Origin: Hymenobacter rubidus | GTDB taxonomy: Bacteria; Bacteroidota; Bacteroidia; Cytophagales; Hymenobacteraceae | NCBI RefSeq assembly: GCF_016734815.1 | Contig: NZ_JAERQF010000006.1 | Coordinates: forward strand, 1 to 64,000 | Length of the DNA stretch: 64,000 nucleotides | Direction of reading: 5' to 3' | Shown here: one piece after another, positions 1,326-47,845 of the stretch | Layout: every line of letters starts with the position of its first letter | Numbering within the stretch: the first letter of the stretch is position 1 | Made by a program: the position numbers and the translations under genes | Notes under the pieces: generated by a model | Seen by the model: the letters and a program-made list of their open reading frames with translations, nothing else | Databases searched by the model: none | Told to the model about the DNA's origin: nothing

Positions 1326-2408
1326 ATGTCCCGCAAAAAGGTTCTGTTTCTCATCGGCTCGCCCAACCAAACCACGCAGATGCACCAGATTGCGCAGCTG
1401 CTGGACGACGATTTTGAGCCGTATTTCAGCCAGCTCTACTACGACGGCTGGCAACGTGGCTTCTACAAATTTCTGCTCTGGACGGGCGGCCTCGACAACA
1501 CCATTGTCACCGGAAAAATCAAGGCCAAAGCCGACAAATACCTGGCCGAGCACGGCTTGAACAACGATTTTGAGGCCCGCGTCTTTCACAACACCTACGA
1601 CCTCGTGGTGTGCTGCTCCGATGTGGTGGTGCCCTGGCCGCTGGTGCGCACCACTAAAACCGTGTTTGTGCAGGAAGGCATGACCGACCCGCTCAACCTC
1701 TGGGCCCGGCTGGTGAAGCGCTTCACCCGCTACCCTATCCTGGCCATTGGCACGGCACTCAACGGGATGAACAACTGCTGCGACATTTACTGCGTGGCTT
1801 CGGAGGGCTACCGCCAGCATTTTGCCCGCGTGGGCGTGGATGCGGACAAGCTGGTGGTGACGGGCATTCCCAACTTCGATAACATCGAGCAGGTGCGGCA
1901 CAACGACTTTCCGCACCACGGCTACGTGCTGGTGGCTACCTCCGACCTGCGCGAAACCTACACCCCCGAGAACCGGCCCAAATTTATTCGGGAGTGCGTG
2001 CGCATTGCGGCCGGGCGGCCCCTCGTTTTCAAGCTGCACCCCAACGAAACCCTGCCCCGCGCGGTAGACGAAATCAAGCAGCACGCCCCGCCCGGCACGC
2101 TCATCTTCACCGACGGCAATACCGACCACATGATTGCCAACTGCGTGGAGCTTATCACCCAATACTCGACGGTGGTGTACGTGGGGCTGGCACTGGGCAA
2201 GCCCGTCCATTCCTATTTCGACGTCGAAGACCTCAAACGCAAGCTTCCCTGGCAAAACGGCGGCACTTCGTCCCGGCGCATTGCGGCCATTTGTCGGGAG
2301 TTTAGCCGGTTTGAAGGCAGTGGGCCGGCTTTTCTGCGTCAATACCAACCCGAGAATTTTGATACCACGACAGCAGCCGCGCCGGGAAGTTCATTAGCTG
2401 TTCACTAA
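1326..2408 (+). CDS. GT-B-type glycosyl- or glycerophosphotransferase-like protein
   Basis: The 360-residue protein starts MSRKKVLFLIGSPNQTTQMH and has no signal peptide, so it is cytoplasmic. The C-terminal half has the donor-site style of capsule and teichoic-acid transferases and of UDP-GlcNAc 2-epimerases: LVFKLHPNE near residue 235, then FTDGNTDHMIANCVELITQYSTV, then GLALGKPVHSYF. The last two blocks resemble the part of GT-B enzymes that holds the nucleotide. It is the first gene of a run that goes on to a cytidylyltransferase and a NeuB-type synthase, so it may transfer the CMP-activated sugar made by those genes. The exact family (CDP-glycerol transferase, capsule transferase or other) cannot be settled by eye. 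Confidence 0.6.
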   Translation: MSRKKVLFLIGSPNQTTQMHQIAQLLDDDFEPYFSQLYYDGWQRGFYKFLLWTGGLDNTIVTGKIKAKADKYLAEHGLNNDFEARVFHNTYDLVVCCSDVVVPWPLVRTTKTVFVQEGMTDPLNLWARLVKRFTRYPILAIGTALNGMNNCCDIYCVASEGYRQHFARVGVDADKLVVTGIPNFDNIEQVRHNDFPHHGYVLVATSDLRETYTPENRPKFIRECVRIAAGRPLVFKLHPNETLPRAVDEIKQHAPPGTLIFTDGNTDHMIANCVELITQYSTVVYVGLALGKPVHSYFDVEDLKRKLPWQNGGTSSRRIAAICREFSRFEGSGPAFLRQYQPENFDTTTAAAPGSSLAVH

Positions 2409-2527
2409 GTCGCGCCCTTTTTGTATCCTTTTTAAGGATTTATTCGACAGGAGCTTACCAATTATTTGGCCTAAGGAAGCCTCCGTTTTAGAGTATTTCT
2501 GCCCCCATTCCGACTACTGAGGCGCCT

Positions 2528-3334
2528 ATGCCCTACCCTAAGATACTGACTGTAGTGCAAGCCCGCATGGGCTCGTCGCGCCTGCCCGGCAAGGTGCTGC
2601 TGCCACTGGCCGGCCAGCCGCTGCTGGTGCGCATGGTGGAGCGGGTGCAGCGCGCCCGCCTGGCCGGCACGGTGGTAGTGGCCACCACCACCGACGCCGC
2701 CGATGACGCCATTGCCGAGTTGTGCGCCGCTCACGGCATGGCGTGCTTCCGGGGCGATGCGCTGGATTTGTTGGACCGGCATTACCAGGCCGCCTGCCAC
2801 TACGGCGCCGACGTGGTGCTGAAAATCCCGTCGGACTGCCCGCTCATCGACCCGGCCGTGATTGACGAAGTGGTGGGCTTTTACCTCGATTTCGCCGAGC
2901 GCTACGATTTTGTAAGCAACCTGCACCCCGCCACTTTCCCCGATGGCAACGACGTGGAGGTAATGCCTTTCGAGGCGTTGGAAACCGCCTGGCGCGAAGC
3001 GAAACGCCCCCTAGAGCGCGAGCACACCACCCCTTTCTTTTGGGAAAATCCCGACCGTTTTCGCATTGGCAACGTGACCTGGGATGCTGGGAAGGACTTT
3101 TCGATGAGCCACCGCTGGACCATTGACTACCCCGAAGACTATTCCTTCATCAGCGCCGTATACGATGCCCTGTACAACCCAAACCCCGCTTTCGGCCTCG
3201 ATGACATCATGAGGCTGACCACCGAGCGCCCCGACATTGCCCAACTCAATGCCCGGTATGCAGGCGTGAACTGGTACCGCAACCACCTCGACGAGTTGAA
3301 AACCGTGGATTCGTCGCAAACCCGGAAAATCTAG
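2528..3334 (+). CDS. SpsF-like cytidylyltransferase (acylneuraminate/ulosonate activation)
   Basis: The 268-residue protein carries the nucleotide-binding signature VQARMGSSRLPGKVL at about residues 10-24, and further blocks ATTTDAADDAI and KIPSDCPLIDP. These are typical of the SpsF / COG1861 branch of CMP-sugar synthetases, which is close to CMP-NeuAc and CMP-Kdo synthetases. The expected reaction is transfer of CMP from CTP to the anomeric hydroxyl of an ulosonic acid. This fits the NeuB-type synthase later in the operon. The C-terminal 40 residues are variable in the family. The substrate is inferred from context only. Confidence 0.8.
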   Translation: MPYPKILTVVQARMGSSRLPGKVLLPLAGQPLLVRMVERVQRARLAGTVVVATTTDAADDAIAELCAAHGMACFRGDALDLLDRHYQAACHYGADVVLKIPSDCPLIDPAVIDEVVGFYLDFAERYDFVSNLHPATFPDGNDVEVMPFEALETAWREAKRPLEREHTTPFFWENPDRFRIGNVTWDAGKDFSMSHRWTIDYPEDYSFISAVYDALYNPNPAFGLDDIMRLTTERPDIAQLNARYAGVNWYRNHLDELKTVDSSQTRKI

Positions 3335-3420
3335 TTGTCAGTTGTTCGTTGTCGGTTGTCAGCTTTTTGGCAAGTCGACACTTAAACGACCTGACAACAG
3401 ACAACCAACAACTGACAACC
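3333..3420. repeat. Family D hairpin with GTTGTCAG-type repeats
   Basis: The left arm reads AGTTGTCAGTTGTTCGTTG and the right arm is the near reverse complement ending CAACAACTGACAACC. Each arm is itself a chain of short TTGTCAGT-like words. It overlaps the stop codon of the previous gene by two bases and ends 8 nt before the ATG of the transketolase gene. A second copy is at 7658-7740 and a related element at 25309-25391. Confidence 0.8.
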
Positions 3421-3428
3421 AACCCCTC

Positions 3429-4286
3429 ATGCTTCCCGAGAAACAACAGAAACTAGAGCAAATGGCCCTGAAAGTGCGCGAGCACATCGTGCGCCTCAGC
3501 ACCGACGGCGGCTGCTTCACGGGCGCCTCCCTGAGCTGCGCCGATTTGCTGGTGTACCTCTACAGCGACCTGCTAAACGTGCGGCCCGACAACCTCCAGG
3601 ACCCTACCCGCGACTACCTCTTCCTGAGCAAAGGCCACGACGTGCCCGCCCTCTACGGCACCTTTGTGGAGCTGGGCTTTATGGACAAAGCCCGCCTCGA
3701 CCAGCACCTGAGCACCGACGACCACATCTATTGGCACCCCAACCGCAACGTGCCGGGCGTGGAATTCCATTCGGGTTCGCTCGGGCACCTGCCCAGCGTG
3801 GCTCTGGGCGTGGCCATGGACTGCAAAATGCGCGGCCAAGACAACAAAGTCATTGTCATCACCGGCGACGGTGAGCTGAACGAGGGCACGGTGTGGGAAA
3901 GCCTGCTGGTGGCCAGCGCCCACAAGGTGAACAACCTCACGCTGGTGGTCGACCGCAACCACTTCCAGGCCAACGTGGCCACCGAAGACCTGATTCCGCT
4001 GGAGCCGATGTCGCCCAAGTTTGAGGCCTTTGGCTGCGAGGTACGCCGGATTGATGGGCACGATTTCGCGCAGTTGGAAGAAGCTTTCTCGGCCCTCCCC
4101 TTCTCCGACACCAAGCCTTCCGTCATCATTTGCGACACAGTGCGCGGACGCGGCCTGCCCAGCATCGAAGCGCGGGCCGACCGCTGGTTCTGCAACTTCT
4201 CGGCCGAGGAAATGGACGAGTTGCTGCGCGAGCTGCACAGCCAGGTAGCCTCGACGCTGACCAGCGAAACCCTGACGGTCCGGTAA
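3429..4286 (+). CDS. Transketolase, N-terminal (TPP-binding) subunit
   Basis: The start is set at MLPEKQQ; codons upstream in the same frame lie in the palindrome. The 285-residue protein has the thiamine-diphosphate motif GDGELNEGTVWESLLVASAH with a following NNLTLVVDRNHFQAN, and the early block CFTGASLSCADLLVYLY with SKGHDVPALY, all typical of split transketolase N-terminal subunits. The partner is the next gene. Together they should move a two-carbon ketol unit between sugar phosphates. Placement between a CMP-transferase and a NeuB-type synthase suggests it makes or reshapes the sugar precursor of the final ulosonic acid and does not serve central metabolism. Confidence 0.88.
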   Translation: MLPEKQQKLEQMALKVREHIVRLSTDGGCFTGASLSCADLLVYLYSDLLNVRPDNLQDPTRDYLFLSKGHDVPALYGTFVELGFMDKARLDQHLSTDDHIYWHPNRNVPGVEFHSGSLGHLPSVALGVAMDCKMRGQDNKVIVITGDGELNEGTVWESLLVASAHKVNNLTLVVDRNHFQANVATEDLIPLEPMSPKFEAFGCEVRRIDGHDFAQLEEAFSALPFSDTKPSVIICDTVRGRGLPSIEARADRWFCNFSAEEMDELLRELHSQVASTLTSETLTVR

Positions 4287-4307
4287 TATTCAGAACGAAC
4301 ACAGAAC

Positions 4308-4401
4308 GTCATGCTGAGCGCAGTCGAAGCATCTCTACCGCGCAAGTAATTCAATCGAGCCAACGAAGCGGTAGAGATGCTTCGACTGCGCTCAGCATGA
4401 C
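4308..4401. repeat. Family A palindrome
   Basis: The arms are GTCATGCTGAGCGCAGTCGA..GCATCTCTACC and its exact reverse complement, with a loop of about 30 nt holding TAATTCAATCGAG. It sits in the 144-bp gap between the two transketolase subunit genes. Confidence 0.9.
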
Positions 4402-4430
4402 CGTTGTACGATTCTCAAGATTCAAAAAGC

Positions 4431-5384
4431 ATGAACTACGAAGAACTAATCAAGCAAACTGCCCTCGCCGATGAGCGCATTGTGGTGATGACGGCCGAAA
4501 ACCGTGCCCTCATCCGCAACCTGCCGGCTGTGCTAGGCCCGCGCTTCATCGATACCGGCATCACCGAGCAAACCCTCATTGGCGCGGCGGCCGGCCTGGC
4601 CCTGCGCGGGCGGGTGCCCATTCTGCACGCACTGGCCACGTTTCTCACGCTGCGGGCCTTCGAGTTTATCCGCACCGACGTGGGCATCGGCCAGCTGCCG
4701 GTTAAGCTGAGCGGCTTTGTGCCCGGCTTCCTTTCGGATGGCAACGGACCAACCCACCAGGCCATTGAAGATGTGAGCCTGATGCGCGGCATTCCGGGCA
4801 TGACGGTTTTCGCGCCGGCCGATGAGCAGGACATGCTGGCCATGCTCCCCGCTATCTGGGCCTCGCCCCAGCCGGCCTACGTGCGGGTGAACACCCGCCC
4901 GGCCACGTATGAGCACGCCCCCTTCGAGATGGGCAAGGCCGAAATCGTGGCCGAGGGCACCGACATCACCATCCTCACCTACGGCATGCTCTTCGAGCAA
5001 ACGCTGGTGGCTCGCGAGCTGCTGCAGGCGCAGGGCAAATCGGTGGGCCTCCTCAACCTGCGCAGCCTCAAACCCGTGGACGAAGCCGCGCTGCTCGATG
5101 TGGTGCGCCGCGGCTCCCTCATTGTGACGGTGGAGGACCATTTCATCACGGGCGGCCTCTATTCCATTCTGGCCGAGGTGCTGCTGCGCAATCAATTGAC
5201 GGCCCGTGTGCTGCCCTTGGCGTTGGAGGAGCGGTGGTACCGCCCCGGCCGCCTCAGTGCCGTGCTGGAGTACGAAGGCTTCACCGGCCACCACATTGCC
5301 CGCCGCATCACGGAATACCTGGGCGAGTCGGGCGCGGCCATTGCCGAAGGCCCGGCTGTGCTGGAAAATGAGTTTGCGGAGTAA
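4431..5384 (+). CDS. Transketolase, C-terminal (pyrimidine-binding) subunit
   Basis: The start chosen is MNYEELIKQ, just after the palindrome, giving 317 residues. The pyrimidine-binding domain fills roughly residues 1-170. It includes FIDTGITEQTLIGAAAGLAL, where the glutamate of ITEQ is in the position of the catalytic Glu that activates the cofactor. The C-terminal domain follows with VEDHFITGGLYSILAEVL. The protein pairs with the upstream N-terminal subunit. Split transketolases of this kind also resemble 1-deoxyxylulose-5-phosphate synthase-like enzymes, but a two-gene split is more usual for transketolase-type proteins in secondary or surface-sugar pathways. Confidence 0.87.
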   Translation: MNYEELIKQTALADERIVVMTAENRALIRNLPAVLGPRFIDTGITEQTLIGAAAGLALRGRVPILHALATFLTLRAFEFIRTDVGIGQLPVKLSGFVPGFLSDGNGPTHQAIEDVSLMRGIPGMTVFAPADEQDMLAMLPAIWASPQPAYVRVNTRPATYEHAPFEMGKAEIVAEGTDITILTYGMLFEQTLVARELLQAQGKSVGLLNLRSLKPVDEAALLDVVRRGSLIVTVEDHFITGGLYSILAEVLLRNQLTARVLPLALEERWYRPGRLSAVLEYEGFTGHHIARRITEYLGESGAAIAEGPAVLENEFAE

Positions 5385-5395
5385 CTCAAATACCT

Positions 5396-5497
5396 GTCAT
5401 GCTGACGAAGGAAGCATCTTATCACGGCTGTTTTCGTCAGAATTACTAACTCATGCAGCCAGGACGTGATAAGGTCCTTCGCTGCGCTCAGGATGAC
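5396..5497. repeat. Degenerate family A palindrome
   Basis: The ends are GTCATGCTGACGAAGGAAGC and GGTCCTTCGCTGCGCTCAGG followed by ATGAC. The right half resembles the variant at 887-973 (with GTGATAAGGTCCTTC), while the left half is eroded, so pairing is imperfect. It ends 9 nt before the start of the aminotransferase gene. Confidence 0.7.
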
Positions 5498-5506
5498 AAA
5501 ATAGCC

Positions 5507-6841
<1,335 letters not shown>

Positions 6842-6847
6842 GTGTTC

Positions 6848-7654
6848 ATGGACCTCTTTTCTTTAACCAACAAAACCGCCATTGTCACGGGCGCCTGCGG
6901 GCTCATCGGTCGGCAGCATTGCGTAGCCCTGGCCAATGCCGGCGCCAACGTGGTGGTGGCCGACATCAACGCCGAAGCCTGCGCCGCCACGGCAGCCGGA
7001 TTGCCCGGCGGCATCCACCTGCCGCTGGCGGTGGATGTGACAAGCCCGGAGTCGCTGGCCGCTGCCCGCAATAAGATTCTGGAGCAGTTCGGCCACATCG
7101 ATGTGCTGGTGAACAATGCCGCCATCAACGACATGTTTGAGAATCCGGCCCTGGCGGCCGACCTGAGCAAGTTTGAGAATTTCCCACTGGCCACCTTCCA
7201 GAAAGTGCTGGAGGTGAACGTGACGGGCATTTTTCTGGCCGCGCAGGTTTTCGGCACGCCCATGGCCAAACAAGGCCACGGCTCCATCATCAACGTGGCG
7301 AGTACCTACGGCATCGTCGGGCCCGACCAGAGCATCTACCGCAACGAGGCCGGCGAGCAGACCTTCTACAAATCGCCCTCCTACCCCATGACCAAGGGCG
7401 CGGTGGTGAACTTCACCCGCTACTTGGCCGCCTACTGGGGCCAGGCCGGCGTGCGCGTGAACACGCTCTCGCCCGGCGGCGTGGAAAACAGCCAAGACGA
7501 ATTTTTCATCAAGCAATACAGCGCCAAAACGCCCCTGGGCCGCATGGCTACGCCCACCGATTACCAGGGCGCGGTGATATTCCTGGCCTCGGATGCGTCG
7601 GCCTATATGACCGGTGCCAACCTGGTGGTGGATGGCGGCTGGACGGCAATCTGA
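6848..7654 (+). CDS. SDR family NAD(P)-dependent oxidoreductase (sugar operon)
   Basis: The ATG at 6848 (MDLFSLTNKTAIVTG) is preferred to an in-frame GTG two codons earlier. The 268-residue protein has the cofactor motif TGACGLIG (14-21), NNAAIND in place of NNAG, and the catalytic set Ser152, Tyr179 and Lys183 (YPMTK). There is an extended loop between Ser and Tyr with IYRNEAGEQTFYKSPS. The C-terminus GANLVVDGGWTAI is typical of classical SDRs. It likely makes or reduces the keto group used by the neighbouring aminotransferase. It is translationally close to that gene. Confidence 0.85.
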   Translation: MDLFSLTNKTAIVTGACGLIGRQHCVALANAGANVVVADINAEACAATAAGLPGGIHLPLAVDVTSPESLAAARNKILEQFGHIDVLVNNAAINDMFENPALAADLSKFENFPLATFQKVLEVNVTGIFLAAQVFGTPMAKQGHGSIINVASTYGIVGPDQSIYRNEAGEQTFYKSPSYPMTKGAVVNFTRYLAAYWGQAGVRVNTLSPGGVENSQDEFFIKQYSAKTPLGRMATPTDYQGAVIFLASDASAYMTGANLVVDGGWTAI

Positions 7655-7657
7655 TTT

Positions 7658-7740
7658 AGTTGTCAGTTGCTCGTTGTCAGTTGTTAGTCTCAGACGTTCA
7701 ACTCAACAACCTAACAACTGACAACGAGCAACTAACAACT
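7658..7740. repeat. Family D hairpin with GTTGTCAG-type repeats
   Basis: Left arm AGTTGTCAGTTGCTCGTTGT, right arm ACAACGAGCAACTAACAACT. It starts 3 nt after the SDR stop and ends 15 nt before the NeuB-type gene. Confidence 0.8.
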
Positions 7741-7755
7741 AAAACCAAACATCTT

Positions 7756-8646
7756 ATGCAAGCTGTTGAAATTCGCAAAAACCGATTCATTGGCACGGGC
7801 CACCCGGCCTACATCATTGCCGAAATCGGCATCAACCACAACGGCTCGCTCGACCTGGCCAAGCAGCTGATTTCCGAAGCCGCCAAGGCTGGCTGCGACG
7901 CCGTGAAGTTCCAGAAGCGTACGCCCGAGTTGTGCGTGCCCAAAGACCAGTGGGAAAAGCAGCGCGACACCCCCTGGGGCCGCATGAGCTACATCGACTA
8001 CAAGCGCAAAACCGAGTTCGGCCAAGCCGAGTACACAGCCATCGACGACTACTGCCGCGCCTTGGGCATCGACTGGTTTGCCTCGTGCTGGGACGAGCCG
8101 TCGGTGGATTTCATGGAACAATTCGCGCCTGTGCTGTACAAAATGGCCTCCGCTTCCCTCACCGACAAACCCCTGCTCGACCGCGTGCGCGCCACCGGCC
8201 GCCCGCTGATGCTGAGCACCGGTATGAGCACGCTGGACGAAATCAACCAGGCTGTGAAATGGGTGGGCCTGGATAAGCTGATGATTGCGCACTCCACGTC
8301 CTCCTACCCCTGCCCGCCGGCCGAGCTAAACCTGCGCATGGTGCCCGTGCTGCAAGGCATGTTCCCCGGCACACCCATCGGCTACTCGGGCCACGAAACC
8401 GGCCTGGCCACCACCGTAGCCGCCGTGACCTTGGGCGCCAGCTTCGTTGAGCGCCACTTCACCCTAGACCGCGCCATGTGGGGTTCCGACCACGCCGCCA
8501 GCGTTGAGCCGGGCGGCATGGCCAAGCTCGTACGCGACATCCGCGACGTGGAAGAAGGCCTCGGTGACGGCGTGAAGCGCGTGTACGACTCCGAGCTCGA
8601 ACCCCGCGCCCGCCTGCGCCGCGAGCTGACACCGAACCAGGAGTAG
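7756..8646 (+). CDS. NeuB-type N-acetylneuraminate/ulosonate synthase without SAF domain
   Basis: The start MQAVEIRKNRF is taken because the longer in-frame extension is palindrome sequence. The 296-residue protein is the TIM-barrel of the sialic-acid synthase family: YIIAEIGINHNGSLDLA, DAVKFQKR, MLSTGMSTLDEI, IGYSGHETG, and GASFVERHFTLDR. Enzymes of this family join phosphoenolpyruvate to an aldose to give a 3-deoxy-ulosonic acid. Full-length NeuB, PseI and LegI proteins are about 335-350 residues with a C-terminal SAF (antifreeze-like) domain. That domain is absent here; the protein ends about 20 residues after ELEPRARLRR. The sugar substrate is probably made by the transketolase, aminotransferase and SDR upstream. 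Confidence 0.85.
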   Translation: MQAVEIRKNRFIGTGHPAYIIAEIGINHNGSLDLAKQLISEAAKAGCDAVKFQKRTPELCVPKDQWEKQRDTPWGRMSYIDYKRKTEFGQAEYTAIDDYCRALGIDWFASCWDEPSVDFMEQFAPVLYKMASASLTDKPLLDRVRATGRPLMLSTGMSTLDEINQAVKWVGLDKLMIAHSTSSYPCPPAELNLRMVPVLQGMFPGTPIGYSGHETGLATTVAAVTLGASFVERHFTLDRAMWGSDHAASVEPGGMAKLVRDIRDVEEGLGDGVKRVYDSELEPRARLRRELTPNQE

Positions 8647-8693
8647 CCTGTTTGGGTTGAACGCTCGAACTTCCTGAACGAATAAAAACGAAC

Positions 8694-8791
8694 GTCATGC
8701 TGAGCGCAGCCGAAGCATCTCTACCGTTTAACTAATCCAATTGAGAGGATTACTACTGCGGTAGAGATGCTTCGGCTGCGCTCAGCATGAC
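8694..8791. repeat. Family A palindrome
   Basis: Arms GTCATGCTGAGCGCAGCCGA..GCATCTCTACCG and reverse complement; the loop holds TAATCCAATTGAGAGGATTA, itself partly palindromic. It separates the sugar operon from the desaturase-family gene and could act as a terminator. Confidence 0.9.
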
Positions 8792-8824
8792 GTTCTTTTA
8801 GCTCACAATCTGCCCTGACAAGCC

Positions 8825-9826
8825 ATGCATCACGTCGAACTTATCACCACGGCTATCCTGCTGATTTGGGTGGCCATTGTGATTACGCTGGAGCGCATCA
8901 TTCCTTACCGCAAGGGGCTGCCTTTTTTTCGGGAGGGTTTCTGGACTGACTTGGTACTTTACACCTTCGTGCAGAGCTACGCACTGAAAATCATCATTTT
9001 CGACTACATCATTCAGCCGCTGGACCAGCACTTTGGGTTCTCGAAACTGCATTTTGTGACAGACTGGCCGGTGTGGGTGCAAGTGCTGTTTTTCGTGATT
9101 ACGCACGATTTCTACATCTACTGGTTTCACCGGTTTCAGCACAGCAGCCCGCTGTTCTGGCGCACCCACGAGGCGCACCACTCGGGCAAGCAGGTGGACT
9201 GGCTGGCCGGCTCCCGCTCGCACGCGCTGGAAATCATCATCAACCAGACCATTGAGTTTGCGCCCATCGTCCTGCTCGGGGCCGACCCCATGGTGGTACC
9301 CATCAAGGCCTGCATCGATGCCGTGTGGGGCATCTGGATTCACTGCAACGTGGACGTGCGCTCGGGCTGGCTGCAATACTTTATCAACGGACCCGAGATG
9401 CACCTTTGGCACCACGCCGACCACGAGGAAGTGTTTTACGCCAACTTCTCCACCAAATTCGCCTTCTGGGACTGGATTTTTGGCACTGCCTACCGCCCCG
9501 ACCAAAAGCCGCTGAAGTGGGGCTTGCCCTATACTTTCCCGAAGGACTATTTCAGCCAGCACGTATTTTCCGTGGCCCGCTTCGATGAAGAGGAGCTGGC
9601 CAAACGCTCCCGGCTGTTCCGCGCCTACCATGGCATCCGCGGGCGGCTGCTCCGCAAGCTCACCGACCGGGTGCCGGCCCTGCGCCCGCTGCACGGCTGG
9701 CCCGTGCCCGAAACCCATACGACTACCATCCCGGCTCAGCGGCCGGGCGGTAATTTCGCTGCCTCTGCACCCGCAAAAATTCAAGAACCTTCTCTTTCGA
9801 CCACCGCAGCTGCTTCTTCCCGTTGA
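8825..9826 (+). CDS. Sterol desaturase / fatty acid hydroxylase family membrane protein
   Basis: The 333-residue protein has hydrophobic N-terminal segments (about 5-24 and 40-65, 80-98) and the di-iron histidine clusters of this superfamily: THDFYIYWFHRFQH (HxxxxxxxH), THEAHHSG (HxxHH), and later MHLWHHADHEE. The enzyme would use two irons and O2 to hydroxylate or desaturate a lipid. The true substrate (sterol, hopanoid, carotenoid, fatty acid) cannot be told. The C-terminal 90 residues, after FPKDYFSQHVFS, are Pro- and Ala-rich and look disordered. The stop overlaps the next start (TTGA), so the two genes are probably co-translated. Confidence 0.82.
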   Translation: MHHVELITTAILLIWVAIVITLERIIPYRKGLPFFREGFWTDLVLYTFVQSYALKIIIFDYIIQPLDQHFGFSKLHFVTDWPVWVQVLFFVITHDFYIYWFHRFQHSSPLFWRTHEAHHSGKQVDWLAGSRSHALEIIINQTIEFAPIVLLGADPMVVPIKACIDAVWGIWIHCNVDVRSGWLQYFINGPEMHLWHHADHEEVFYANFSTKFAFWDWIFGTAYRPDQKPLKWGLPYTFPKDYFSQHVFSVARFDEEELAKRSRLFRAYHGIRGRLLRKLTDRVPALRPLHGWPVPETHTTTIPAQRPGGNFAASAPAKIQEPSLSTTAAASSR

Positions 9827-10194
9827 TAAATCCCTGGTTTTCCCTATTCCTGGCCTCTTTCATGGAGGTGTGCTGGACGTACAGCCTCAAAGCGCTCAAC
9901 ATGCAGCGCATCAAGGAGGTAGCGTGGCTGCATAGTTTCAGCCAGCCCACCGTGCTGCTGCCCGTTGTGCCGCTGATTGGCTACGTAGCTTTCGGGTTAG
10001 CCAACGTCGTATTCCTGTCGTGGGCTATGCGGGCCATTCCCACCGCCACCGCCTATTCGTCCTGGATGGCGCTGGCGGTGGTTGGCATCAAGCTAGTCGA
10101 TTTGTTCTACCTCAAACAGCCGTTTTCCTGGCTGAGTGTGTTTTACACCAGCCTCATTATTATTGGCGTGTTGGGGCTGCGGCGTATAGATTAA
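9823..10194 (+). CDS. Small multidrug resistance (SMR) family transporter
   Basis: The likely start is the TTG at 9823, which overlaps the upstream TGA; the protein is then 123 residues. An ATG at 9862 would delete half of the first helix and the family glutamate, so it is rejected. Four hydrophobic segments are visible (about 5-23, 45-66, 70-90, 97-118). Glu15 in FMEVCWTYSLKAL sits where EmrE has its proton- and drug-binding Glu14. TAYSSWMALAVVGIKLVDLF matches the TM3-TM4 region. The family exports cations as a dimer. Coupling to the hydroxylase gene may reflect a shared role in envelope or lipid-linked cargo, which is inference. Confidence 0.82.
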   Translation: MINPWFSLFLASFMEVCWTYSLKALNMQRIKEVAWLHSFSQPTVLLPVVPLIGYVAFGLANVVFLSWAMRAIPTATAYSSWMALAVVGIKLVDLFYLKQPFSWLSVFYTSLIIIGVLGLRRID

Positions 10195-12004: not shown

Positions 12005-12020
12005 ATCGAAATCAAAGAAC

Positions 12021-12115
12021 GTCATGCCGAGCGCAGCCGAGGCATCTCGCTCGCTTCGTTGCCATGCCATTGATTACTTCGGCACGCGAGATGCCTCGGC
12101 TGCGCTCGGCATGAC
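12021..12115. repeat. Family A palindrome
   Basis: Arms GTCATGCCGAGCGCAGCCGA..GGCATCTCGC and reverse complement, with GATTACTT in the loop. Note CCGAGC paired with GCTCGG where most copies have CTGAGC/GCTCAG. It lies between two genes of the same strand. Confidence 0.9.
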
Positions 12116-12137
12116 GACAGATTAGGGGTGTTCGTTA

Positions 12138-33657: not shown

Positions 33658-33680
33658 GCAAATTCCCCAAATTAAGAACG

Positions 33681-33780
33681 GTCATGTCGAGCGCAGCCGA
33701 GACATCTCGCGTGCCACCACTAATCCCTTTTGACTGGATTACTAAAGCACGCGAGATGTCTCAGCTGCGCTCGACATGAC
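33681..33780. repeat. Family A palindrome
   Basis: Arms GTCATGTCGAGCGCAGCCGA..GACATCTCGCGTGC and reverse complement with one mismatch; TCGAGC pairs with GCTCGA. The loop holds AATCCCTTTTGACTGGATTA. It is in the gap between the acetylesterase and GH95 genes. Confidence 0.9.
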
Positions 33781-33825
33781 GGGCCTGTTTATGGGCACCA
33801 ACCCTTACTCCTCAAAACTTCACCC

Positions 33826-40925: not shown

Positions 40926-40999
40926 TACTGCCGCTGCTTCGGACTGTACACTGATACCGAAACCGCTCTAGAAAGGCACGAATGCAACGAAAAGGAACA

Positions 41000-41093
41000 G
41001 TCCTGCTGAGCGCAGTCGAAGCATCTCTACCTCGATAGTAATTCAGTCGATTCAACGAAGCGGTAGAGATGCTTCGACTGCGCTCAGCAGGAC
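41000..41093. repeat. Family A palindrome
   Basis: Arms GTCCTGCTGAGCGCAGTCGA..GCATCTCTACC and reverse complement; loop with TAATTCAGTCGATTCAAC. The loop is like that at 4308-4401. Confidence 0.9.
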
Positions 41094-41154
41094 GGCCACA
41101 CGGACCATCAGAAAACTAAACGGCCCAATTTCTCCACTAAATTCCCCTTCCAAT

Positions 41155-47708: not shown

Positions 47709-47733
47709 AGGCGGTTTTGAATTCTATCAAAAC

Positions 47734-47822
47734 GTCATGCGGAGCGCAGCCGAAGCATCTCTACTGCATCAGTATAATAATTACTTGTGCGGTAGAGATG
47801 CTTCGGCTGCGCTCCGCATGAC
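47734..47822. repeat. Family A palindrome
   Basis: Arms GTCATGCGGAGCGCAGCCGA..GCATCTCTACTGC and reverse complement; CGGAGC pairs with GCTCCG. The loop includes ATAATAATTACTTG. Confidence 0.9.
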
Positions 47823-47845
47823 GTTCATTTTTTTATGAACAGTCG

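What the first reader, a model, noticed from the sequence alone, without database searches (positions are those of the whole stretch)
1326..8646. Sugar operon joining a split transketolase, class III aminotransferase, SDR and NeuB-type synthase to a cytidylyltransferase
The order is GT-B-type transferase, SpsF-like cytidylyltransferase, transketolase N and C, aminotransferase, SDR, NeuB-type synthase. Known sialic, legionaminic and pseudaminic acid routes start from UDP-GlcNAc or GDP-GlcNAc with epimerases, dehydratases and N-acetyltransferases. None of those is here. A plausible reading is that transketolase builds a ketose or extends an aldose, the aminotransferase and SDR put an amino group on it, NeuB adds pyruvate, and CMP activation feeds the transferase. 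This would be a new type of nonulosonic-like acid for the surface. I do not know a characterised pathway with this gene set.
Basis: inference. Interest (0 to 1): 0.75.

Follow-up and report, generated by a model that had tools for sequence, protein, structure and literature searches.

The report
Conserved operon for unknown amino-ulosonic acid
A set of genes shared by many Bacteroidota and Ignavibacteria, and by a few unrelated bacteria, appears to build an undescribed sialic-acid-like amino sugar and, judging from its neighbours, may attach it to a membrane lipid; no described pathway with this gene set turned up in the papers searched.

Summary
The genes in order are GT-B protein, cytidylyltransferase, split transketolase, class III aminotransferase, SDR and NeuB; it continues with a fatty-acid-hydroxylase-family protein and an SMR transporter (window 1326-10194). 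All seven reported genes occur together at 70 of 95 distinct untruncated orthologous loci, and 14 more lack only the transketolase pair. Hosts include the window's order, Ignavibacteria, a Kapabacteria and a Nitrospirae MAG, and a Methylomagnum plasmid. Most loci (65 of 95) also have a KDN9P/Kdo8P-type phosphatase, once fused to NeuB; here it lies elsewhere in the genome. Operon-type transketolases keep the cofactor residues but have Phe and Trp in place of two active-site histidines in 83 of 83. Kdo genes are present separately. Neighbours hint at a lipid: hydroxylase near 83 of 98 loci, SMR or LPG_TM membrane proteins at 42 of 98, OlsF at 11, OlsB/OlsA-type acyltransferases at 3. Best reading: a CMP-activated amino-ulosonic acid, made by an unknown route, is moved onto a membrane aminolipid or related acceptor. 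The sugar pathway is well supported; the lipid acceptor is a moderate inference; the sugar's structure is unknown.

The parts
1326..2408 (+). GT: GT-B-fold protein, putative CMP-ulosonate transferase
   Evidence: No Pfam hit at E 0.001; GT-B model. Invariant E117-G118 and H238-P239 in 22 sequences, 121 residues apart, resemble the D/E-D/E-G and HP motifs of bacterial sialyltransferases (E153-G154 and H278-P279 in NmB-polyST; PMC2169525 passages); the first motif position is Q here, not D/E.
2528..3334 (+). CMPs: SpsF/KdsB-type cytidylyltransferase
   Evidence: PF02348 103 bits; NCBIfam KdsB/PseF models match below their cut-offs.
3429..4286 (+). TKN: transketolase N-terminal subunit
   Evidence: PF00456 86 bits. 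Mg/ThDP residues kept; TktA H26 -> F and H261 -> W in 83 of 83 operon-type sequences.
4431..5384 (+). TKC: transketolase C-terminal subunit
   Evidence: PF02779 and PF02780; nearest PDB sequence is the split transketolase C-chain 6yaj. TktA E411 and H473 kept; no counterpart of R358, S385, H461 or R520 in the 9 operon pairs aligned.
5507..6841 (+). AT3: class III PLP aminotransferase, GSAM-like
   Evidence: PF00202 168 bits; best NCBIfam PRK06209 397 bits, below its cut-off of 486. PLP lysine in 119 of 119.
6848..7654 (+). SDR oxidoreductase
   Evidence: PF13561 168 bits.
7756..8646 (+). NeuB-type PEP-condensing synthase without a SAF domain
   Evidence: PF03102 256 bits. E23, K51, K129, H213, E232 and H234 in 109 of 109, aligned with PDB NeuB/SpsE chains.
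8825..9826 (+). FAhyd: fatty-acid-hydroxylase-superfamily membrane protein
   Evidence: PF04116 103 bits; only NCBIfam hit is OlsE, 104 bits, far below its cut-off of 475. His motifs invariant in 17. Near the core at 83 of 98 distinct loci.
9823..10194 (+). SMR: small transporter of the EmrE/Gdx type
   Evidence: PF00893 45 bits; nearest PDB sequences are SMR proteins 6wk5/8vxu. Near the core at 35 of 98 distinct loci.

Best explanation
A dedicated biosynthetic operon. A divergent split transketolase, a PLP aminotransferase and an SDR prepare an amino sugar, probably as a phosphate. A SAF-less NeuB condenses an aldose with phosphoenolpyruvate to give a 3-deoxy-2-ulosonic acid. A KdsC/KDN9P-type phosphatase, encoded at the locus in most relatives and elsewhere in this genome, removes the phosphate. 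The cytidylyltransferase makes the CMP derivative, and the GT-B enzyme transfers the residue to an acceptor. From the neighbours, the acceptor or final product is most likely a membrane lipid of the aminolipid (ornithine/glycine-lipid) type or similar, hydroxylated by FAhyd and handled by a small transporter. SHOWN (sequence, conservation): gene set, linkage, kept catalytic residues, altered transketolase site, lipid-gene neighbours. INFERRED: order of steps, a phosphorylated intermediate, an amino group on the product, the lipid acceptor. UNKNOWN: chain length, stereochemistry, acyl groups. My separate estimates: dedicated pathway 0.9; CMP-ulosonic acid 0.85; amino-bearing 0.7; phosphorylated NeuB substrate 0.6; lipid acceptor 0.45.
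For: All seven genes at 70 of 95 distinct untruncated loci (in L093 and L146 the transketolase match is of a divergent type), and all but the transketolase pair at 14 more. The eight-gene set on a gammaproteobacterial plasmid; GT to NeuB plus phosphatase and SMR in a Nitrospirae-labelled MAG (L175). NeuB and AT residues invariant. The HAD phosphatase of two relatives scores 162 and 159 bits against the KDN9P phosphatase model (cut-off 180) and 140 and 145 against TIGR01670 (cut-off 107); best PDB match 3e81 (I recall this as the Bacteroides KDN9P phosphatase); fused to NeuB in one 475-aa frame in L080. Transketolase F/W signature 83 of 83. A fused 652-aa transketolase stands in its place in L093; of 8 genomes with transketolase-less operons, 6 have a 656-665-aa transketolase frame elsewhere at 35-40%, one has it in pieces, one has none. 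Lipid link: FAhyd 83 of 98, SMR 35 of 98, LPG_TM 7 of 98, the last two never together; OlsF 50-2117 bp after the last core or FAhyd gene, same strand, at 11 loci, over its cut-off in the 4 scanned; LplT and an OlsB/OlsA-type pair after the Methylomagnum operon; OlsB/OlsA-type pairs near L082 and L141.
Against: No biochemistry. 15 of 98 loci lack FAhyd nearby, 56 of 98 have neither SMR nor LPG_TM, and 81 of 92 lack adjacent OlsF. The OlsB- and OlsA-type proteins score below their model cut-offs, and at L082 and L141 lie on the opposite strand. In the window's genus the link to OlsF is negative: none of 36 AT3 carriers has an OlsF-like protein at E 1e-50 or better, while 26 other same-genus genomes do; none of the 149 genomes passes the OlsF cut-off. 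The SMR resembles cation exporters in sequence. A glycosyltransferase that looks like family 9 by eye lies upstream at 7 loci, as would suit a glycan. The phosphatase is the only KdsC-type protein in 18 of 21 genomes, so it may serve Kdo alone; two carriers (G109, G124) have none. The fused L093 transketolase keeps H26, and a paralogous split transketolase of G000 lacks the phosphate binders too, so only the F/W pair marks the operon type. Five loci with AT3 and NeuB show no SDR (L154, L157, L158, L161, L165), three of them no TKN.
Confidence: 0.45

Rival explanations
1. Same pathway, but the CMP-ulosonic acid is built into a surface polysaccharide, LPS core or protein glycan; the hydroxylase and small transporter are neighbours with a separate or indirect role.
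For: Most known NeuB pathways feed surface glycans (established knowledge). More distant AT relatives (33-40%) lie beside cytidylyltransferase-type genes (L065, L079) and in L065 also beside a NeuB gene, with a PseG-like protein by eye. A Legionella O-antigen cluster has a gene annotated GSA aminomutase between PseG and an acylneuraminate cytidylyltransferase (PMC3694923 passages). A family-9-like glycosyltransferase (by eye) lies upstream of the operon at 7 loci.
Against: Among the 16 commonest neighbour families listed I recognised by eye no flippase/polymerase or ABC exporter of polysaccharides (most were not profiled); the commonest are SMR (35 loci) and a phosphoesterase (23), with OlsF/OlsB (13) and LPG_TM (8). 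Only one transferase-like gene is in the unit.
Confidence: 0.33
2. The operon supplies a substitute for Kdo in lipid A/core assembly.
For: NeuB, phosphatase and CMP synthetase parallel KdsA, KdsC and KdsB; the phosphatase in carriers is usually the genome's only KdsC-type protein.
Against: WaaA in 21 of 22 genomes; in a partly different set of 22, KdsA over cut-off in 20 and KdsB in 21, carriers and non-carriers alike. Only the KSB1 MAG G831 fails all three; G828 fails only the KdsA cut-off.
Confidence: 0.05
3. The transketolase is the ordinary pentose-phosphate enzyme and is here only by chance or for supply; NeuB and the rest form the real pathway.
For: 14 of 95 operons lack the transketolase pair, so a general transketolase may do.
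Against: G000 has two further split transketolase N-chains. The operon type has F and W for H26 and H261 in 83 of 83. Linkage holds in several phyla, and in L093 a fused enzyme takes its place.
Confidence: 0.08
4. The aminotransferase and SDR make a different, separately used metabolite and NeuB makes plain KDN or a KDN-like acid.
For: NeuB plus KDN9P-type phosphatase plus CMP synthetase is the Bacteroides KDN gene set (recalled), and five loci keep NeuB and AT without a detected SDR.
Against: AT3 lies between the transketolase or cytidylyltransferase genes and NeuB in nearly all loci; but loci were chosen by AT3, so NeuB clusters without AT were not looked for.
Confidence: 0.09

Closest known systems
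Bacteroides KDN pathway (KDN9P synthase, KDN9P phosphatase, CMP-KDN synthetase; recalled, plus NCBIfam NF058599)
   Same: NeuB-type synthase, KdsC-like phosphatase near the KDN9P phosphatase model, CMP synthetase.
   Different: Here with split transketolase, class III aminotransferase, SDR, GT-B protein, hydroxylase and transporter; substrate unknown; phosphatase model below its cut-off.
Sialic, legionaminic and pseudaminic acid pathways
   Same: NeuB family and CMP activation.
   Different: No epimerase, dehydratase or N-acetyltransferase matched in the operon; NeuB below the NeuB_NnaB and PseI cut-offs (256 vs 400; 199 vs 340) and without a SAF domain.
Aminoshikimate/AHBA (kanosamine) route with split transketolase, oxidoreductase, aminotransferase and PEP-condensing synthase (recalled)
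   Same: Same enzyme logic: oxidise, aminate, transketolase step, condensation with PEP.
   Different: NeuB instead of an aDAHP synthase, and CMP activation; no homology tested here.
8-amino-Kdo pathway KdnA/KdnB of Shewanella (recalled)
   Same: Amino group on an ulosonic acid by a dehydrogenase and an aminotransferase.
   Different: KdnA/KdnB act on Kdo; different enzyme families, no transketolase and no NeuB (recalled, not tested).
Ornithine/glycine-lipid synthesis and modification (OlsA/B/F, OlsE, GlsA/B)
   Same: OlsF or OlsB/OlsA-type genes beside the operon in some lineages; hydroxylase of the OlsE superfamily.
   Different: No ulosonic acid or CMP-sugar genes known in that system (recalled); OlsE model far below cut-off.

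Membership tests
Canonical NulO (Neu/Leg/Pse) pathway | NeuB-family synthase with catalytic residues | tested here: met
   PF03102 256 bits; key residues 109 of 109.
Canonical NulO (Neu/Leg/Pse) pathway | UDP- or GDP-sugar epimerase/dehydratase and N-acetyltransferase in the cluster | tested here: not met
   None matched among the operon genes. Caveat: the GT-B protein has a 2-epimerase-like fold; 21 of 22 members match Epimerase_2 weakly (best E 1.8e-6), the window's at 16.7 bits vs cut-off 30.6.
Canonical NulO (Neu/Leg/Pse) pathway | NeuB_NnaB or PseI equivalog score | tested here: not met
   255.6 vs cut-off 399.65; 198.5 vs 340.25.
Bacteroides-type KDN pathway | KDN9P phosphatase equivalog | tested here: not met
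   Best model for both proteins scanned but 162 and 159 bits vs cut-off 180.
Bacteroides-type KDN pathway | Mannose 6-phosphate as NeuB substrate | not testable with these tools
   Needs an enzyme assay.
Pentose-phosphate transketolase | ThDP/Mg-binding residues (roles recalled) | tested here: met
   TktA D155, E160 and N185 in 83 of 83; E411 in 11 of 11 aligned proteins, 9 of them operon split pairs.
Pentose-phosphate transketolase | Active-site H26 and H261 (roles recalled) | tested here: not met
   F and W in 83 of 83 operon-type TKN, chosen at E 1e-60 to the window's. The paralogue at G000 C10 keeps both; the fused L093 enzyme keeps H26.
Pentose-phosphate transketolase | Phosphate-binding R358, S385, H461, R520 (roles recalled) | tested here: not met
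   No counterpart in the 9 operon pairs aligned; nor in the G000 C10 paralogue, so not specific to the operon type.
Glutamate-1-semialdehyde aminomutase (HemL) | NCBIfam HemL score | tested here: not met
   TIGR00713 248 bits vs 527.
Bacterial GT-B sialyltransferase group | D/E-D/E-G and HP motifs | tested here: inconclusive
   Invariant QEG (first position not D/E) and HP, 121 residues between E and H (PMC2169525 passages).
Ornithine-lipid hydroxylase OlsE | NCBIfam OlsE equivalog score | tested here: not met
   104 bits vs cut-off 475.
Kdo pathway substitute | Loss of KdsA/KdsB/WaaA in carriers | tested here: not met
   KdsA and KdsB over cut-off in 20 and 21 of 22 genomes; WaaA in 21 of 22 of a partly different set.

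The most novel reading that the evidence does not exclude
The operon makes a new class of bacterial membrane lipid: an aminolipid (ornithine/glycine-lipid-like or another acyl amine) carrying a CMP-donated amino-ulosonic acid head, a bacterial counterpart of sialolipids. The transketolase-like enzyme catalyses a new sugar-building or sugar-cutting reaction, and FAhyd creates the hydroxyl to which the sugar is joined. It could be one of the unidentified aminolipids reported for Hymenobacter and relatives (recalled).
Probability: 0.28. Interest if true: 0.88.

Novelty: new variant of a known kind. Interest (0 to 1): 0.72.

Why it matters
Ulosonic acids are key surface sugars, and their described routes start from nucleotide amino sugars, mannose phosphate or arabinose phosphate (recalled). 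An operon kept in the window's order, in Ignavibacteria, in Nitrospirae-labelled MAGs and on a gammaproteobacterial plasmid, which pairs NeuB with a transketolase whose active site is altered, would add a new entry route to this sugar class. If the lipid link holds it would also define an undescribed lipid in environmental bacteria, and it makes a long-standing gap (unidentified aminolipids, recalled) testable by one gene deletion plus lipidomics.

Tried and rejected
Kdo replacement: rejected by WaaA, KdsA and KdsB counts. NeuC-like 2-epimerase for the first gene: the fold matches (Z 18) and 21 of 22 members match Pfam Epimerase_2 weakly, but the window's protein is below threshold and the EG/HP pairs suit a CMP-using transferase; it remains possible. 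Housekeeping transketolase: see rivals. Literature: eight searches aimed at the cluster listed nothing that, from titles and abstract openings, describes it; one search looked for amino-Kdo and for sialyltransferase motifs. Only open-licence papers are searchable; I read passages of four papers and none in full. PMC11766843, which came up with transketolase and ulosonic, concerns an unrelated Cobetia capsule (passages). PMC7695847 (passages) has none of the lipid-transport words I searched for. PADLOC gave no hit for the GT and NeuB proteins. A PDB profile search with the hydroxylase gave no meaningful hit. The two haloarchaeal plasmid regions opened (AT relatives 42-44%) show no annotated NeuB in the stretch. 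The HemL residue positions other than K265 are not used, as my numbering was off. The OlsF/operon exclusion in the genus (0 of 36 AT3 carriers vs 26 of about 55 others; hypergeometric about 9e-8 to 2e-7 for a genus size of 91-93) ignores relatedness and may reflect a few clade-level events; two carriers (G042, G082) have weak partial hits that I did not count as OlsF-like.
Full report
WHAT IS THERE. The window is the first 64 kb of contig C66 of a 5.49 Mb genome.

CONSERVATION. AT3 served as probe, so all counts are of loci chosen by AT3. In 149 genomes (the window's own included), 36 of the same genus carry AT3 at 82-100% identity and two of another family at 73%. I looked at the loci of 23 of those 36, the window's included, and all have the seven genes. 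In an even sample of the order 34 of 390 genomes match at E 1e-100, 33 at 61% or more and one at 41%, and in the phylum 53 of 395 at 52% or more. By record title most are Ignavibacteria, Melioribacter(aceae) or just Bacteroidetes MAGs, with single KSB1, Myxococcota and Chitinophagaceae records, two Kapabacteria and two Nitrospirae. I scored 123 loci: the 80 plus 43 of the 60 fetched stretches, the other 17 being excluded because their AT was under 50% identical. Of the 95 with at least 1 kb on both sides of the core, 70 have all seven genes on one strand (in L093 and L146 the transketolase match is of a divergent type), 14 lack only the transketolase pair and 11 are otherwise incomplete (one of these, L078, has NeuB and FAhyd inverted). 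A KdsC-type HAD gene lies near the core in 65 of the 95, in four of them only as a 34-43% match upstream. Among 98 loci with AT3, NeuB and at least 1.5 kb downstream, FAhyd is nearby in 83, SMR in 35 and an LPG_synthase_TM protein in 7, the last two never together. In L068 FAhyd and SMR are present but further off, and counted as absent. A Methylomagnum ishizawai plasmid has the eight-gene set with the phosphatase, 51-69% identical to the window's proteins (the phosphatase compared with that of L048).

THE MISSING PHOSPHATASE. In relatives a HAD protein lies between SDR and NeuB. The two scanned score best against the KDN9P phosphatase model, below its cut-off, and above the cut-off of the Kdo8P phosphatase family TIGR01670. 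In L080 it is fused to NeuB in one frame of 475 residues. The window's genome has it at C7, 73% identical. Of 21 genomes searched, the 5 same-genus operon carriers have one such protein each, at 70-100%, and the 6 same-genus non-carriers have one each, at 33-37%. Two carriers of another family have none, and only G365 has two. So it probably also serves Kdo, and a phosphorylated NeuB product is likely but not proven.

THE TRANSKETOLASE. It keeps the Mg/ThDP machinery, but TktA H26 is F and H261 is W in 83 of 83 operon-type sequences (82 loci plus the window, chosen at E 1e-60 to the window's TKN). The TktA phosphate-binding residues have no counterpart in the nine operon pairs aligned (residue roles recalled). 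Two controls in the same call: a paralogous split enzyme of this genome (C10) keeps both histidines but also lacks the phosphate binders, and the fused enzyme inside the L093 operon keeps H26. So the F/W pair, not the missing phosphate binders, marks the operon type, and one operon works with an enzyme that lacks at least part of that signature. Of 8 genomes whose operon lacks the pair, 6 have a 656-665-residue transketolase frame elsewhere at 35-40%, one has it in pieces and one has none; the fused enzyme of L093 (genome G818) is of this kind. Transketolase-type chemistry therefore appears to belong to the pathway, with altered substrate handling in most lineages.

NEUB, AT AND GT. Key NeuB residues are invariant in 109 of 109 and the AT lysine in 119 of 119. 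AT3 is GSAM-like but below the HemL and PRK06209 cut-offs. The GT model is GT-B, nearest to UDP-GlcNAc 2-epimerases; Pfam Epimerase_2 matches 21 of 22 members weakly. Its invariant EG and HP pairs are spaced 121 residues apart, against 125 for the sialyltransferase motifs described in PMC2169525 (passages read), with Q at the first motif position. I take it for a transferase, but a nucleotide-sugar hydrolase or epimerase is not excluded.

NOT KDO, AND NOT THE ONLY NEUB ROUTE. WaaA was found in 21 of 22 genomes, and in a partly different set of 22 KdsA and KdsB pass their cut-offs in 20 and 21. G000 also has another NeuB at C1:141026 with a cytidylyltransferase-type match at C1:135022, apparently a separate NulO locus.

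THE LIPID LINK. OlsF lies 50-2117 bp after the last core or FAhyd gene, on the same strand, at 11 of 92 loci with at least 3 kb downstream; all 11 are among 63 loci outside the window's order (this grouping of loci is mine, and the Chitinophagaceae record L166 is counted in the 63). The four of the 11 that were scanned pass the OlsF cut-off at 721-737 bits. The Methylomagnum operon is followed by LplT (552 bits, cut-off 297) and by OlsB- and OlsA-like genes, both below cut-off. L082 and L141 have OlsB/OlsA-like pairs on the opposite strand; their OlsB-like proteins and the OlsA-like one of L082 are below cut-off, that of L141 was seen only by similarity. A calcineurin-type phosphoesterase recurs at 23 of 118 loci (the Pfam result for L087's copy is). 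Against this, a family-9-like glycosyltransferase (by eye) lies upstream at 7 loci, and in the window's genus none of the 36 AT3 carriers has an OlsF-like protein at E 1e-50 or better while 26 other same-genus genomes do, none of them over the OlsF cut-off. This may mean one lipid replaces another, or only shared ancestry.

CONCLUSION. A dedicated pathway to a CMP-activated, probably amino-bearing ulosonic acid is well supported. Its acceptor is probably a membrane lipid, though a surface glycan remains a serious rival. No characterised cluster of this kind was found in the listings of the held papers.

Noticed in passing
window 4308-4401, 8686-8799, 33666-33795, 47731-47825; further single copies near 12009-12123 and 40988-41101: REP-like palindromic elements (inverted arms of 34-53 nt, 84-100% complementary) of one repeat family; two sit inside the operon, between TKN and TKC and between NeuB and FAhyd.
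   Followed up: no
G000 C1:135022 and C1:141026 (L001): Second NeuB gene (436-aa frame) with a cytidylyltransferase-type match about 6 kb away, apparently a separate nonulosonic acid locus.
   Followed up: no
same-genus genomes: Operon carriers and non-carriers have different single KdsC-type phosphatases (70-100% vs 33-37% identity to the operon type), suggesting displacement of the Kdo phosphatase: 5 of 5 vs 6 of 6 tested.
   Followed up: partly
OlsF-like aminolipid synthase (E 1e-50 or better) and AT3 of the operon were not found together in the genus (0 of 36 carriers), yet in some Ignavibacteria OlsF sits next to the operon.
   Followed up: partly
L085 5924-6907: A YhcG-type PDDEXK nuclease gene (PF06250, PF17761) lies inside the operon between CMPs and TKN.
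   Followed up: no
L056, L062, L064, L065, L079: Related class III aminotransferases (33-40%) lie near NeuB and/or cytidylyltransferase-like genes, without a detected transketolase pair; a wider uncharacterised group.
   Followed up: partly
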